Shown here one piece after another: positions 10,673 through 61,914 of a DNA stretch of 64,000 nt (position 1 is the stretch's first letter; each line of letters begins with the position of its first letter). The notes beneath the pieces are model-generated. The model was not told the origin of the DNA and did no database searches. It worked only from the letters and a program-made list of their open reading frames with translations. The position numbers and the translations under genes are program-made. This DNA is from Prevotella sp. (GTDB taxonomy: Bacteria > Bacteroidota > Bacteroidia > Bacteroidales > Bacteroidaceae). The stretch lies in contig JAFUST010000083.1 of assembly GCA_017467535.1 (NCBI GenBank), positions 39,454 to 103,453 of the forward strand. Direction: 5' to 3'.

Positions 10673-10697
10673 TTAGCCCCCTAACTTAGGGGGCTTA
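10673..10697. repeat. Short solo copy of the CCCCCTAAGTTAGGGGG palindrome
   Basis: The palindrome AGCCCCCTAACTTAGGGGGCT is one end of the longer element seen at 28122, 43990 and 61800. On the minus strand it supplies the last codons of the antiporter gene (Ser-Pro-Leu-Ser-stop), as the longer copies do for gcvPB and lutB. Confidence 0.85.
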
Positions 10698-26723: not shown

Positions 26724-28136
26724 ATGAACAATCGACTATACGGAAATCTGATATTCGAACTGTCGCAGCCGGGCCGCCGCGGCTACTCGCTGCCCAAAAA
26801 TCGCTTTGGCGACTACCAGGTGCCGCAGCACCTGCGCCGACAGGAGGATGCCGCCCTGCCTGAATGCGACGAGATGACGGTGGTGCGCCACTATACCAAT
26901 CTGTCGGCCAACAACTTCGGCGTGGACAACGGCTTCTATCCGCTCGGCTCCTGCACGATGAAGTACAACCCGAAGATCAACGAGGAGGTGGCTGCCCTGC
27001 CGCAGTTCCAGAACCTGCATCCCCTGCAGCCTGCTGAGACGGTGAAGGGGGCCGAGGCCGTCTGCACCCTGCTCTGCCGTGCGCTCTGCTCGCTGACGGG
27101 CCTTCACGCCTTCACGCTGAAGCCCTATGCTGGTGCCCACGGCGAACTGACGGGCCTGATGGTCATCAAGCGCTACCACGAGAGCCGGGGTGACCTGCAG
27201 CGCACCAAAATCATCGTGCCTGACTCGGCCCACGGCACCAACCCCGCCTCTGCCGCCGTCTGCGGCCTCGACATCATTGAGGTGAAGTCGCTCAGCGACG
27301 GCACCGTAGATGTGGAAAACCTCAAGGAAGTCCTTTCAGTAAGCGGCGATTCTATCGCCGCCATGATGATGACCAACCCCAACACCCTTGGTCTCTTCGA
27401 GCGCCAGATTCCCCAGATAGAGCGGCTCATCCACGAGGCTGGCGGCCTGATGTACTACGACGGGGCTAACCTCAATCCCCTGCTGGGTGCCTGCCGTCCT
27501 GGCGACATGGGCTTCGACGTGATGCACATCAATCTGCACAAGACCTTCTCCACGCCCCACGGCGGAGGTGGCCCCGGTGCCGGCCCTGTCGGCGTGCGCA
27601 AGGGCTTGGAGGAGTTCTTCCCCGAGGTGTCGCCCTATCATGGCAACTTCGCCGTCGCCATGCGGGCCTACGCCTACATCCTCTCCCTCGGTCGCGAGCA
27701 TATCAAGGAGGTAGGCCCGTTGGCCACGCTCAATGCCAACTACATCAAGGAGTGTCTGAAGGATGTCTATGAGTTGCCCATCGACGGCCTGTGCAAGCAC
27801 GAGTTCGTCTTCGATGGCTTGAAAGATAAGTCTACTGGCGTCACCACGATGGACGTGGCCAAGCGTCTGCTGGACTACGGCTATCATGCGCCCACCATCT
27901 ACTTCCCCCTGCTCTTCCACGAGAGCCTCATGATAGAGCCCACGGAGAATGAGTCGCGCGAGACCATCGACGGCTTTATCGCCGTGATGCGCCAGATAGC
28001 CGAGGAGGCCAAGGCCGACCCGGAACTGGTGAAGGGCGCCCCCCACCAGACACCCATCGGTCGTGTGGATGACGTTCTGGCAGCCAAGCATCCGGTAGTG
28101 ACCTATCGTCAACTAACTCTTAGCCCCCTAAGTTAG
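26724..28136 (+). CDS. gcvPB: glycine dehydrogenase (decarboxylating) subunit 2
   Basis: This subunit carries PLP on the Lys of HINLHKTFSTPHGGGGPG (K273). The 470-residue length is normal. Other family segments are FYPLGSCTMKYNPKINE, DSAHGTNPASAAVCG and YDGANLNPLLG. The C-terminal residues 'LSPLS' before the stop are encoded by a palindromic element (28122-28229) that continues into lpd. Confidence 0.97.
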   Translation: MNNRLYGNLIFELSQPGRRGYSLPKNRFGDYQVPQHLRRQEDAALPECDEMTVVRHYTNLSANNFGVDNGFYPLGSCTMKYNPKINEEVAALPQFQNLHPLQPAETVKGAEAVCTLLCRALCSLTGLHAFTLKPYAGAHGELTGLMVIKRYHESRGDLQRTKIIVPDSAHGTNPASAAVCGLDIIEVKSLSDGTVDVENLKEVLSVSGDSIAAMMMTNPNTLGLFERQIPQIERLIHEAGGLMYYDGANLNPLLGACRPGDMGFDVMHINLHKTFSTPHGGGGPGAGPVGVRKGLEEFFPEVSPYHGNFAVAMRAYAYILSLGREHIKEVGPLATLNANYIKECLKDVYELPIDGLCKHEFVFDGLKDKSTGVTTMDVAKRLLDYGYHAPTIYFPLLFHESLMIEPTENESRETIDGFIAVMRQIAEEAKADPELVKGAPHQTPIGRVDDVLAAKHPVVTYRQLTLSPLS

Positions 28137-28229
28137 GGGGATGGGGGTCTGAACAAGCAAAAGACTCTTCGTATGATTGATTTAATGGACAATGTGGGTC
28201 GTTCAGACCCCCAACCTAACTTAGGGGGC
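28122..28229. repeat. REPIN-like inverted element spanning the gcvPB end and the lpd start
   Basis: The left end GCCCCCTAAGTTAGGGGG then TGGGGGTCTGAACAAG pairs with the right end TCGTTCAGACCCCCAAC then CTAACTTAGGGGGC, about 40 nt away. Each end is itself a 17-nt palindrome. The left arm encodes Ser-Pro-Leu-Ser-stop of gcvPB; the right arm encodes GRSDPQPNLGG of lpd. The right arm is 3 nt shorter than in the copy at 61800, which keeps the frame. Confidence 0.9.
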
Positions 28230-29489
28230 GCAAGTGACCTCCTCATCATCGGTGCGGGCCCTGGTGGCTACCGCACTGCTGAATATGCCGCCAAGCAGGG
28301 TCTGAAGGTGACCATCTTTGAGTCCGACGAGGTGGGTGGCACCTGCCTCAATGTAGGCTGCATCCCCACGAAGACCTACGTCCACGCCGCCTCGTTTGCC
28401 GAGGCCCGTGAGCGGATGCCCCAGGTGGTGGCCCAACTCCGTGCAGGCGTCGAGGGCATCCTCTCTCACCCCAACATCACCCTCATCCGCGAAAAGGCCT
28501 CCTTCGTCGATGCCCGCACGGTTACTTGTCCCGTATGTGGCGATATCATCGCCACCAAGGCCATCATCATCGCCACCGGCTCAGAGACCAAGTGGCTCCC
28601 CCTGCCCGACATCGGCAGCGACCCTCGCGTGGTCGACTCCACCGGCCTGCTCCGCCTCGACACGCTGCCCCGCCGCCTCGCCATCATCGGTGCTGGCGTC
28701 ATCGGCATGGAGTTTGCCAGCGTCTTCCAGCGTTTCGGCTCCGAGGTCACCGTCATCGAGTATCTCAAGGAGTGCTTGCCCGCCCTCGACAGCGACATAG
28801 CCAAGCGGCTGCGCAAGACGCTGGAGAAGCAAGGCATCACCTTTAAGATGAAGACCGCCGTACAGTCGCTGGCCGACATCGATGCCGACGTCATCCTGAT
28901 GGCCACGGGCCGCCATCCTCGCACCGAGGGCCTGAACCTGCAGGCCGCTGGCATCACGCTCGCCCCCAACGGCAGCATCCCCGTGGACGAACACTTCCGT
29001 TGTGTATGTGGCAATACTATTGCCACAAACGATGTTTACGCCATCGGCGACGTGAATGGCCGCCAGATGCTGGCCCACGCCGCCGAGATGCAGGGCATCC
29101 ACGTAGTTAATCAGATACTGGGAAAACCAGACAACATCCGCTTTGACATCATGCCCGCTGCCATCTTCACTGAACCCGAAGCAGCCAGCGTCGGCCCCTC
29201 CGAAGACCAACTTAAGGCCGAGGGCACGCCCTACGAGTGTCGCAAGGCCTTCTGGCGAGCCAACGGCAAGGCCCTGGCCATGAATGAGACCGAAGGCCTG
29301 CTGAAACTGTTCAGCGCCCCCGATGCAGGCCTCATTCTGGGCTGTCACGCCTTCGGTGCCCACGCGGTCGACATCATTCAGGAGGTCAGCGTGCTGATGT
29401 GCATGGGGGCCACCGTCGAGCAACTGCGCTCCATGGTCCACATCCACCCCACGCTCTCCGAGATACTGCTGTCGGCTGCCGAGGCGTAG
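28173..29489 (+). CDS. lpdA: dihydrolipoyl dehydrogenase (L protein)
   Basis: This FAD enzyme reoxidises dihydrolipoyl-GcvH with NAD+. The 438-residue protein has the FAD motif LLIIGAGPGGYRTAEYA, the redox disulfide GGTCLNVGCIPTK, the NAD-binding IIGAGVIGMEFA, AIGDVNG and the active-site HIHPTLSE. No start codon exists between the inserted element and the FAD motif, so residues 9-19 (GRSDPQPNLGG) are translated from the element. Two 23-bp palindromes inside the gene each encode a VCGxxIAT peptide that is not usual for the family. Confidence 0.93.
   Translation: MIDLMDNVGRSDPQPNLGGASDLLIIGAGPGGYRTAEYAAKQGLKVTIFESDEVGGTCLNVGCIPTKTYVHAASFAEARERMPQVVAQLRAGVEGILSHPNITLIREKASFVDARTVTCPVCGDIIATKAIIIATGSETKWLPLPDIGSDPRVVDSTGLLRLDTLPRRLAIIGAGVIGMEFASVFQRFGSEVTVIEYLKECLPALDSDIAKRLRKTLEKQGITFKMKTAVQSLADIDADVILMATGRHPRTEGLNLQAAGITLAPNGSIPVDEHFRCVCGNTIATNDVYAIGDVNGRQMLAHAAEMQGIHVVNQILGKPDNIRFDIMPAAIFTEPEAASVGPSEDQLKAEGTPYECRKAFWRANGKALAMNETEGLLKLFSAPDAGLILGCHAFGAHAVDIIQEVSVLMCMGATVEQLRSMVHIHPTLSEILLSAAEA
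28533..28555. repeat. In-gene mini-palindrome, copy 1 (lpdA)
   Basis: GTATGTGGCGAT-ATC-ATCGCCAC forms a stem of TGGCGAT with ATCGCCA. It encodes part of CPVCGDIIATK. Copy 2 at 29004 differs at four positions, two of which are paired (G-C to A-T). Confidence 0.7.
29004..29026. repeat. In-gene mini-palindrome, copy 2 (lpdA)
   Basis: GTATGTGGCAAT-ACT-ATTGCCAC keeps the stem seen in copy 1 through a compensatory change. It encodes part of CVCGNTIATND, just before the AIGDV motif. Confidence 0.7.
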
Positions 29490-43989: not shown

Positions 43990-44109
43990 GCCCCCTAAGT
44001 GAGGGGGATGAGGGTCTGAACAAGCGAATCAGACAATTGCTTAAAATGTTTGTGTTAGCCATAAGGGCCTGCGCCTGTTCAGACCCCCATCCCCCTAACT
44101 TAGGGGGCT
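43990..44109. repeat. REPIN-like inverted element in the ddh leader
   Basis: The ends CCCCCTAAGTGAGGGGG and CCCCCTAACTTAGGGGG flank GGGTCTGAACAAG and CTGTTCAGACCC, about 45 nt apart. Unlike the copies at 28122 and 61800 it does not overlap coding sequence; it sits between the ddh promoter and its ATG, so the leader RNA would fold into this structure. Confidence 0.9.
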
Positions 44110-60449: not shown

Positions 60450-61813
60450 GTACACAACATGCAAAGGCTGCTGAGCGCTATCAGCAGCGTCCCGACGTGG
60501 TGGAACGCCACGACCAGACCTTCTTCGGCGTTCGCCAGAAGCGCGACCGTATGGCACAGGCGCTGCCCGAGTGGGAAGACCTGCGCGAGGCCGCCAGTCA
60601 GATCAAGAAGCACACCATCACCCACCTGGCCGACTATCTGGAGCAGTTCGAGCAGAACGCCACCCGCAATGGCGTCCATGTCCACTGGGCCCGCGATGCC
60701 CGTGAGTACAACCAGATTGTCTGCGACATCCTGCAGAGCCACGGCGTGAAGAAGGTGGTGAAGTCGAAGAGCATGCTCACCGAGGAGTGCCACCTCAACC
60801 AGAATCTGGAGAAACAGGGCATCGAGGTCGTCGAGACCGACCTGGGCGAGCGCATCCTGCAGATGATGCGTCTGGCTCCCAGCCACATCGTCATGCCCGC
60901 CCTCCATGTGCATCGTGAGGACATCGCCGCCTGCTTCCGCCAGTACGGCCTCCCCGTCGAGAGCGACGACCCGACGCATCTCACCTACGTGGCCCGCATG
61001 CACCTGCGCCAGCAGTTCATGGAGGCCGGTGCAGGCATGACCGGTGCCAACTTCGGCATAGCCGCCACGGGCGACGTGGTGGTATGCACCAACGAGGGCA
61101 ATGCCGATATGTCCACCTCGATTCCCAAACTGCATATCGTGTCGATGGGCATCGAGAAACTCATCCCCGACTATTCCTCGATGGCCGTCTTCCAGCGGCT
61201 GCTGGCCCGCAACGGCACCGGACAGGAGACCACCGTCTACACCAGCCACTTCCGCGGCCCGCGCCCCGGCGGCGAGATGCACATCGTGCTCGTAGACAAC
61301 GGTCGCAGCAGCATCCTCTCCAACCAGGAGCACTGGCAGACGCTCAAGTGCATGCGCTGTGGAGCCTGCATGAACACCTGCCCCGTCTATCGTCGCTCCG
61401 CCGGCTACAGTTACACCTACTTCATCCCCGGCCCCATCGGCATCAACCTCGGCATGCTGCGCGACCCGCGTCAATATAGCGACAACGTGTCGGCCTGCTC
61501 CCTCTGCTGCTCGTGCGACAATGTCTGTCCCGCCAAAGTCGACCTCTCCACGCAGGTCTACCGCTGGCGCCAGCAACTGGACTCCCTCGGCAAAGCCGAC
61601 CCGATGAAGAAGATCATCTCCGGGGCGATGGCCTTCCTCTTCGACCGTCCGCAGGTCTACACCGCGGCGCTCCGCCTGTCGCCCGCCGCCAACTGGATTC
61701 CCGGCCCCGTCATACAGAGCAGTCTGAATCCCTGGGCCTACGGTCACCAGATGATGAAGTTCCCACAGAAGTCGTTCCACCAACTATGGAAGACCCTGCG
61801 CCCCCTAAGTTAG
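60446..61813 (+). CDS. lutB: L-lactate oxidation iron-sulfur protein LutB
   Basis: The ATG at 60446 overlaps the lutA stop (ATGA) and gives the usual 455 residues. An N-terminal LUD domain (AASQIKKHTITHLADYLEQF onward) is followed by two 4Fe-4S motifs, CMRCGACMNTCPVYRR and CSLCCSCDNVCPAKVD. It relays electrons in conversion of L-lactate to pyruvate. The last residues (LRPLS-stop) are encoded by the left arm of a REPIN-like element. Confidence 0.93.
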   Translation: MSTQHAKAAERYQQRPDVVERHDQTFFGVRQKRDRMAQALPEWEDLREAASQIKKHTITHLADYLEQFEQNATRNGVHVHWARDAREYNQIVCDILQSHGVKKVVKSKSMLTEECHLNQNLEKQGIEVVETDLGERILQMMRLAPSHIVMPALHVHREDIAACFRQYGLPVESDDPTHLTYVARMHLRQQFMEAGAGMTGANFGIAATGDVVVCTNEGNADMSTSIPKLHIVSMGIEKLIPDYSSMAVFQRLLARNGTGQETTVYTSHFRGPRPGGEMHIVLVDNGRSSILSNQEHWQTLKCMRCGACMNTCPVYRRSAGYSYTYFIPGPIGINLGMLRDPRQYSDNVSACSLCCSCDNVCPAKVDLSTQVYRWRQQLDSLGKADPMKKIISGAMAFLFDRPQVYTAALRLSPAANWIPGPVIQSSLNPWAYGHQMMKFPQKSFHQLWKTLRPLS

Positions 61814-61914
61814 GGGGTTGGGGGTCTGAACAAGTACCCTATATAGAAAGAAATATGATAGAACAGAAAAGCACGGTGGGTCGTTCAGACCCCCAACCCC
61901 CTAACTTAGGGGGC
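61800..61914. repeat. REPIN-like inverted element spanning the lutB end and lutC start
   Basis: The left arm GCCCCCTAAGTTAGGGGG then TTGGGGGTCTGAACAAG and the right arm GTCGTTCAGACCCCCAACC then CCCTAACTTAGGGGGC are inverted copies 43 nt apart. The left arm encodes the lutB end, the right arm GRSDPQPPNLGG of lutC. Arm sequences match the copy at 28122 apart from a 3-nt in-frame difference. Confidence 0.9.

What the first reader, a model, noticed from the sequence alone, without database searches (positions are those of the whole stretch)
28122..28229. REPIN-like element translated into both gcvPB and lpdA
The left arm of the inverted repeat encodes Ser-Pro-Leu-Ser-stop of gcvPB and the right arm encodes GRSDPQPNLGG near the start of lpdA. 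No other in-frame start lies between the element and the FAD motif, so the peptide must be made. The same peptide with one extra Pro appears in lutC (61879-61914). Two unrelated genes using the same frame of the same repeat argues for tolerance or selection of the coding frame.
Basis: partly seen in the sequence, partly recalled or inferred. Interest (0 to 1): 0.85.

Follow-up and report, generated by a model that had tools for sequence, protein, structure and literature searches.

The report
Nuclease-linked repeat carrying start codons
The repeat between gcvPB and lpdA looks like a short copy of a mobile DNA element whose longer form, in related genomes, carries a homing-type nuclease gene; sitting between operon genes it supplies a stop codon to one gene and a start codon to the next, so that part of it is translated into host proteins.

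Summary
The left arm ends gcvPB (SPLS*). The right arm is translated near the start of Lpd; most relatives read lack it. The "same frame" argument fails: the other two frames of this arm contain stops, so only SDPQPPNLGG can be read through.

The repeat has 40 loci (one only a 12-mer) in this 79%-complete rumen Prevotella MAG. All 30 loci callable on both sides have co-directional flanks, 3 of them inside genes. Copies place the start codon just past the right arm or inside the loop, or lie in frame inside genes.

Main result: wider copies with the same arms, in related genomes, enclose a DUF559 (EDxHD/Vsr-like homing-endonuclease family) gene. In fetched Prevotella loci 43 of 49 short DUF559 genes are bracketed by inverted repeats. 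In 21 of the 43 the downstream gene starts before the right arm and is translated through it. Family-A DUF559s form one clade, 8 of 8.

I read the window repeat as a non-autonomous relic of a DUF559 element. Mobilisation by DUF559 is inferred, not shown: no target duplication was found, and no family-A DUF559 was found in this MAG.

The parts
28122..28154 (+). left arm; its first 15 nt are the last codons S-P-L-S-stop of gcvPB
28155..28200 (+). A-rich loop with candidate lpdA start codons ATG 28173, ATG 28185 and GTG 28194
   Evidence: similar loop (by eye) and identical left arm at the same junction in G280
28201..28229 (+). right arm, translated S-D-P-Q-P-N-L-G-G in Lpd; one CCC codon shorter than the usual arm, frame kept
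28173..29489 (+). lpdA fused at its N-terminus to the repeat; Pyr_redox_2 match starts at residue 22
26724..28136 (+). gcvPB, whose stop codon is supplied by the left arm
61799..61831 (+). second copy, left arm; ends lutB with ...RPLS*
61832..61882 (+). loop with lutC start ATG 61855
61883..61914 (+). right arm, translated S-D-P-Q-P-P-N-L-G-G in LutC
43991..44107 (-). class I copy: start codon of the minus-strand gene lies 10 nt past the arm, not inside the loop
10677..10693 (-). solo palindrome (perhaps a collapsed copy) 12 nt before a minus-strand start codon

Best explanation
The repeat is a short, non-autonomous copy of a mobile element. Shown: a longer form with the same arms, found in related genomes, is left arm - DUF559 gene - right arm. 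The left arm can end the upstream operon gene (SPLS* or AP*). There are two layouts on the downstream side. In layout II the ATG of the next host gene lies before the right arm, usually overlapping or just preceding the DUF559 stop, and reads through the open frame of the right arm into the host protein. In layout I the DUF559 gene ends in or before the right arm, and the host ATG lies at or just past the arm. The short copies in the window mirror these layouts: lpdA and lutC are layout II without the nuclease; 43991 is layout I. Inferred: the arms are the cis sites of the nuclease. Its cut, followed by repair copying, spreads the element between alleles of the same junction (homing). Short copies arise by loss of the nuclease gene. 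Insertion survives in tight or overlapping operon junctions because the element brings its own stop and start. Dispersal to new loci and its chemistry are not explained.
For: (1) All four wide family-A arm pairs (about 390-530 nt inside) that I read hold a DUF559 gene (L085, L373-L375); three pairs with 95-135 nt inside (L376-L378) do not. More came up later (L098, L109, L172, L405; L078 broken). Pfam DUF559 E 8e-33 for L085. (2) 43 of 49 short DUF559 genes in fetched loci are bracketed by inverted repeats above a shuffle null. Some loci had been chosen for their arms; in the 30 loci given for the best hits of a 200-genome search (L384-L413), 19 of 22 distinct short genes are bracketed. The three DUF559 hits of this genome are all bracketed (L328, L414, L415). 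(3) Of the 43, 21 have the downstream fusion (16 with the ATG 1-11 nt before the first base of the DUF559 stop), 17 a start at or past the arm, 5 neither. (4) Family-A DUF559s form one clade, 8 of 8, support 99/85; all arm labels together need 16 changes versus a shuffled mean of 34.2, 0 of 200 as low. (5) Fixed orientation: 62 of 67 class I copies have a gene start 3-20 nt past one defined end, against 8 with a start within 40 nt of the other end; 30 of 30 callable loci are co-directional, 3 of them inside genes. (6) Residues E24, D53, E64, D66, H70 and D79 are invariant in 49 of 49. A DUF559 gene is assigned to the EDxHD homing-endonuclease family in print (PMC9403480, passages). (7) Two loci of this genome (GH43 and purE) share an identical 53-nt loop including the ATG, so loop and arms can be copied together.
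Against: No target-site duplication: mean 3.25 versus 3.08 for shuffled flank pairs, 118 elements. None of the three DUF559 hits in this 79%-complete MAG has family-A arms, although it has 40 family-A loci. Presence of DUF559 in a genome predicts family A only weakly (29 of 39 versus 92 of 161, p 0.067; 14 of 16 arm-rich genomes, p 0.03); Y1_Tnp does so at least as well (29 of 39 versus 82 of 161, p 0.011). Family B alone is not one clade in the tree, and arm labels were set by my own patterns. In other Bacteroidota only 7 of 19 tested DUF559 loci show arms; 11 more lie inside long ORFs and were not tested for arms. Of 11 long or fragmentary DUF559 ORFs 3 have arms. Some loop-coded peptides resemble native N-termini (ilvH MDKNKE versus native MEDKNK), so in some genes the loop may be native. 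No structure model came back.
Confidence: 0.72

Rival explanations
1. REPIN/RAYT system: the arms are REP doublets moved by a Y1 (HUH) tyrosine transposase elsewhere in the genome; DUF559 is a passenger.
For: Shape of inverted doublets, many short copies, no target duplication; Y1_Tnp is present in 29 of 39 family-A genomes and once in this genome.
Against: None of the nine Y1_Tnp loci looked at has a family-A arm; G149, 92% complete with 37 arm hits, has no Y1_Tnp hit; DUF559 lies inside the arms and family-A DUF559s form their own clade.
Confidence: 0.12
2. The hairpins are host regulatory or translation-initiation structures kept by selection at operon junctions (mRNA stabiliser, re-initiation insulator); translation of the arm is incidental.
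For: Fixed orientation and 6-11 nt spacing to the start codon in 54 of 62; A-rich sense-strand loop core, A 781 versus T 445; early class II codons are 58% A versus 44% in class I gene starts; strong folds.
Against: Most relatives read lack them at the same junction (48 of 55 lpdA; 29 of 29 purE; 22 of 28 ilvH rows); unrelated arm families occupy the same junction; longer copies carry a nuclease gene; in-frame copies lie inside genes.
Confidence: 0.12
3. Plain tolerated insertion of a palindrome into coding ends, as for Rickettsia palindromic elements, with no dedicated enzyme.
For: In-frame internal copies in ABC-F, UvrA, alpha-amylase and VapE-like ORFs of this genome.
Against: Does not predict DUF559 inside the arms, clade-arm matching or the ATG/stop overlap.
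Confidence: 0.04

Closest known systems
Rickettsia palindromic elements (RPE)
   Same: palindromic mobile repeat read in frame in unrelated genes (PMC10969869, passages)
   Different: no enzyme gene inside is mentioned in those passages; here many copies sit at operon junctions, supply stop and start, and have a nuclease-bearing form
REP/REPIN with RAYT (TnpA-REP)
   Same: inverted doublets, many short copies, each repeat family with its own enzyme, enzyme gene flanked by the repeats in REPtrons (PMC6006769 and PMC3733652, passages); PMC3733652 also mentions REPs at NH2 and COOH ends of proteins
   Different: enzyme is DUF559 (PD-(D/E)XK/EDxHD type), not HUH Y1; the stop-start arrangement at operon junctions is not described in the passages seen
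EDxHD (Vsr-like) homing endonucleases, I-Bth0305I
   Same: nuclease family; PMC9403480 places a DUF559 gene in it (passages); PMC3943268 describes the family (passages); VsrA of Caulobacter has DUF559 (PMC12907096, passages)
   Different: those passages describe intein, intron, phage or repair contexts; none describes arm-bracketed operon cassettes with short non-autonomous copies
Enterobacterial RU/ERIC repeats fused to ORFs
   Same: small repeats fused in frame to gene ends (PMC2759123, passages)
   Different: no nuclease form and no stop-start arrangement at operon junctions in the passages seen

Membership tests
REPIN/RAYT | two REP-like arms in inverted orientation | tested here: met
REPIN/RAYT | cognate Y1 tyrosine transposase gene flanked by the same repeats | tested here: not met
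   0 of 9 Y1_Tnp loci looked at have family-A arms; 111 of 200 genus genomes have a Y1_Tnp match, so this is a small sample
MITE-type non-autonomous derivative | longer relative with the same terminal inverted repeats and an enzyme gene | tested here: met
   DUF559 inside family-A arms in other genomes; not found in this MAG
MITE-type non-autonomous derivative | target-site duplication | tested here: not met
EDxHD homing endonuclease element | DUF559/EDxHD catalytic domain with conserved acidic and His residues | tested here: met
   Pfam E 8e-33; E24, D53, E64, D66, H70, D79 in 49 of 49; which of these are catalytic is recalled, not tested
EDxHD homing endonuclease element | cuts the empty allele at the insertion site | not testable with these tools
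   needs biochemistry
Rickettsia palindromic element | in-frame translated palindrome in unrelated genes | tested here: met
Rickettsia palindromic element | sequence membership in an RPE family | not tested
   no RPE sequences compared
Rfam RNA family | match above gathering score | tested here: not met
   window 28000-28400 only

The most novel reading that the evidence does not exclude
DUF559 genes in Bacteroidota are the engines of a large, undescribed class of inverted-repeat elements. They spread through operon junctions by carrying their own stop and start codons, leave short start-codon relics that add N-terminal peptides to housekeeping enzymes, and in some lineages sit in frame inside large enzymes (LeuS, MetH, HsdR) as translated, unspliced nuclease inserts.
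Probability: 0.55. Interest if true: 0.92.

Novelty: new variant of a known kind. Interest (0 to 1): 0.82.

Why it matters
It would give DUF559 ("unknown function") a concrete mobile role, explain a class of unexplained N-terminal peptides on conserved enzymes, and show how a selfish element survives in the tightest places of a bacterial genome: it closes one gene and opens the next. It also makes a long-standing question testable: how far translated mobile DNA feeds new protein termini.

Tried and rejected
RAYT as partner: rejected on linkage, though its co-occurrence is at least as good as that of DUF559. Target duplication: none. Frame-preserving indels in class II arms as proof of coding constraint: dropped because class II is defined by an open frame. 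"Loop is always the native start region": not general. purE has no ATG at its native position and shares its loop with a GH43 gene; at L133 (hisA-like) and L151 an ATG that can be the native start still lies past the arm while the loop has its own start. In ilvH a native origin is not excluded. Rfam on 28000-28400: nothing above gathering score.

In print: searches (the last found no paper). DUF559 occurs in 14 held papers; by titles and abstract starts none concerns inverted-repeat elements, and I saw passages of two of them. The I-Bth0305I and RPE originals are not held.

Rows dropped: one search left out 5 of 27 class II rows (two doubtful ORFs, one class I read backwards, two duplicated arms). 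In one search, 3 of 31 loci gave no motif. In one search one duplicate locus (L267) was skipped. In one search near-identical DUF559 cores were counted once (67 hits, 60 kept). Of 11 long ORFs with DUF559, 8 were scanned with Pfam.

Full report
Gene names without a Pfam match cited here (gcvPB, lutB, lutC, ilvB, ilvH, argC, argG, gpsA, paaK and so on) come from my reading of the sequences, not from a call.

WHAT WAS CLAIMED AND WHAT IS THERE. The inverted repeat at 28122-28229 is real. The left arm gives gcvPB its last residues and stop (SPLS*). The loop holds the lpdA start codons. The right arm is translated as GRSDPQPNLGG before the FAD motif, and no other in-frame start lies between. lutB/lutC carries a second copy, a third copy lies at 43991-44107 and a solo palindrome at 10677. 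Of 55 lpdA N-termini of relatives (the best-scoring loci of two searches, not a random sample), 48 carry no translated arm, 6 carry family A or B, 1 is unclear; those 48 mostly start M plus a few residues then DLIIIGAG, sometimes with the start overlapping the gcvPB stop. The insertion is therefore acquired. G280 shares it, with a similar loop (by eye) and an identical left arm, at 77% identity over the aligned region.

FRAME. The right arm reads VQTPNPLT*, FRPPTP* or SDPQPPNLGG. Only the last is open, so any gene started in the loop must use it. The shared frame of lpdA and lutC is forced and is not evidence for selection. In a second repeat family (B), whose right-arm consensus is open in all three frames, two different frames are in use.

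THE FAMILY IN THIS GENOME. There are 40 loci in the 2.39 Mb, 79%-complete MAG, one of them only a 12-mer. All 30 loci with both flanks callable are co-directional, 3 of them inside genes; 10 could not be called. Class I: a start codon just past the arm. In 121 distinct doublets from this and related genomes, 67 have the class I inner end; 62 of these have a start 3-20 nt past the same end, 54 of them at 6-11 nt, and 8 have a start within 40 nt of the other end; in 21 of 60 with a detectable upstream stop that stop lies inside the left arm. Class II: start in the loop and right arm translated: lpdA, lutC, a GH43 gene, a DUF3098 gene, purE, parE/gyrB, ispD, an RNase H gene and a CN-hydrolase, the last with a right arm only. 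In purE the native ATG is gone, while 29 relatives have no element peptide (28 with a visible native start, one cut by a contig end). Class III: whole or partial copies in frame inside ORFs for an ABC-F protein, UvrA, an alpha-amylase, a VapE-like protein and one ORF without a Pfam match. GH43 and purE share an identical 53-nt loop, so loop and arms can be copied together. In the genus, 39 of 200 genomes match the family-A arm pattern.

UNRELATED ARMS AT THE SAME JUNCTIONS. At gcvPB/lpdA, family A sits in 4 genomes (this one included) and family B (PLPHREGQGG) in 3. At ilvH, family B sits in this genome, in G416 and in G050, family A in L201, other repeats in L346 and L356. At parE, family A is found here and in L122, and a third arm family with a DUF559 gene in G144 (L390). 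At argG and gpsA this genome has a class I family-A copy, others have different arms with a DUF559 gene.

THE NUCLEASE. Wider copies of the same arms contain a DUF559 gene: first seen in L085 (family A, before ilvB) and L328 (family B, this genome, between two paaK-like genes). Among 60 distinct DUF559 ORFs in fetched loci, 49 are 110-200 aa, and 43 of these are bracketed by inverted repeats above a shuffle null. Some loci entered because they had arms. In the 30 loci given for the best hits of a search of 200 genus genomes, 19 of 22 distinct short genes are bracketed. In 21 of the 43 the downstream host gene starts before the right arm and is translated through it; in 16 of these the ATG lies 1-11 nt before the first base of the DUF559 stop. 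In 17 the host gene starts at or past the arm (-2 to +34 nt); 5 fit neither. In several family-A copies the DUF559 stop itself is the right-arm frame VQTPNPLT* or a variant. DUF559 phylogeny follows the arm family in part: family A 8 of 8 in one clade; C nearly so (2 changes); B not alone in its clade; all labels need 16 changes against a shuffled mean of 34.2. The residues E24, D53, E64, D66, H70 and D79 are invariant in 49 of 49, and L109 matches PDB 3hrl, endonuclease-like protein, E 2.8e-14. Published passages place a DUF559 gene in the EDxHD homing-endonuclease family (PMC9403480) and call a DUF559 protein Vsr-like (PMC12907096).

BEYOND PREVOTELLA. In 198 genomes drawn from the phylum 109 have DUF559. 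Of 30 loci read, 11 have DUF559 inside a long ORF; of the other 19, 7 have arms above the null. Pfam on 8 of the 11 shows host domains on both sides of DUF559 in LeuS (2), MetH (2), HsdR (2) and a type ISP enzyme; in an HsdM protein host sequence continues past DUF559 without a further domain. The flanking residues resemble translated arms (by eye). Splicing was not tested.

HOW IT PROBABLY WORKS. Shown: anatomy, placement, frames, coupling of family-A arms to one DUF559 clade. Inferred: DUF559 cuts empty junctions and repair copies the element; short copies are relics that lost the nuclease; the stop-start design lets it survive in operons. Not explained: movement to new loci without a target duplication, and the absence of a family-A nuclease from this incomplete MAG. 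Genome-level co-occurrence is weak, and Y1_Tnp does as well or better, so the case rests on physical linkage and co-divergence.

VERDICT. Closest relatives in print are RPEs, REPINs and EDxHD homing endonucleases; the searches of the held library showed me no description of this combination.

Noticed in passing
L436, L439, L456, L462, L440, L442, L450, L434: DUF559 domains lie in frame inside LeuS, MetH, HsdR, HsdM and a type ISP enzyme of other Bacteroidota, flanked by PSPxGRG / LPLGEDLGEG-like peptides.
   Followed up: partly
L318, L328, L338 and other family B loci: A second repeat family (CCCTCCCTNNNAGGGAGGGGCAGGGGG) is also present in this genome; of its doublets read in several genomes many have the start codon in the loop (e.g. 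ilvH, L318).
   Followed up: partly
L065:2400-2560: UvrA of this genome carries an in-frame repeat copy; PMC3733652 (passages) also reports REP insertions in uvrA and uvrB of other bacteria.
   Followed up: no
L189:5865-5970 and L189:7066-7164: The left arm plus about 10 nt of loop is tandemly duplicated at two loci of one contig, perhaps a trace of the copying mechanism.
   Followed up: no
L271, L272, L231: The region upstream of lpdA in other genomes carries further unrelated inverted repeats.
   Followed up: no
L244 (G000:C108:19825-19986): The only Y1_Tnp match of this genome lies in a long open frame (434 aa) with no family-A arm in the fetched locus.
   Followed up: partly
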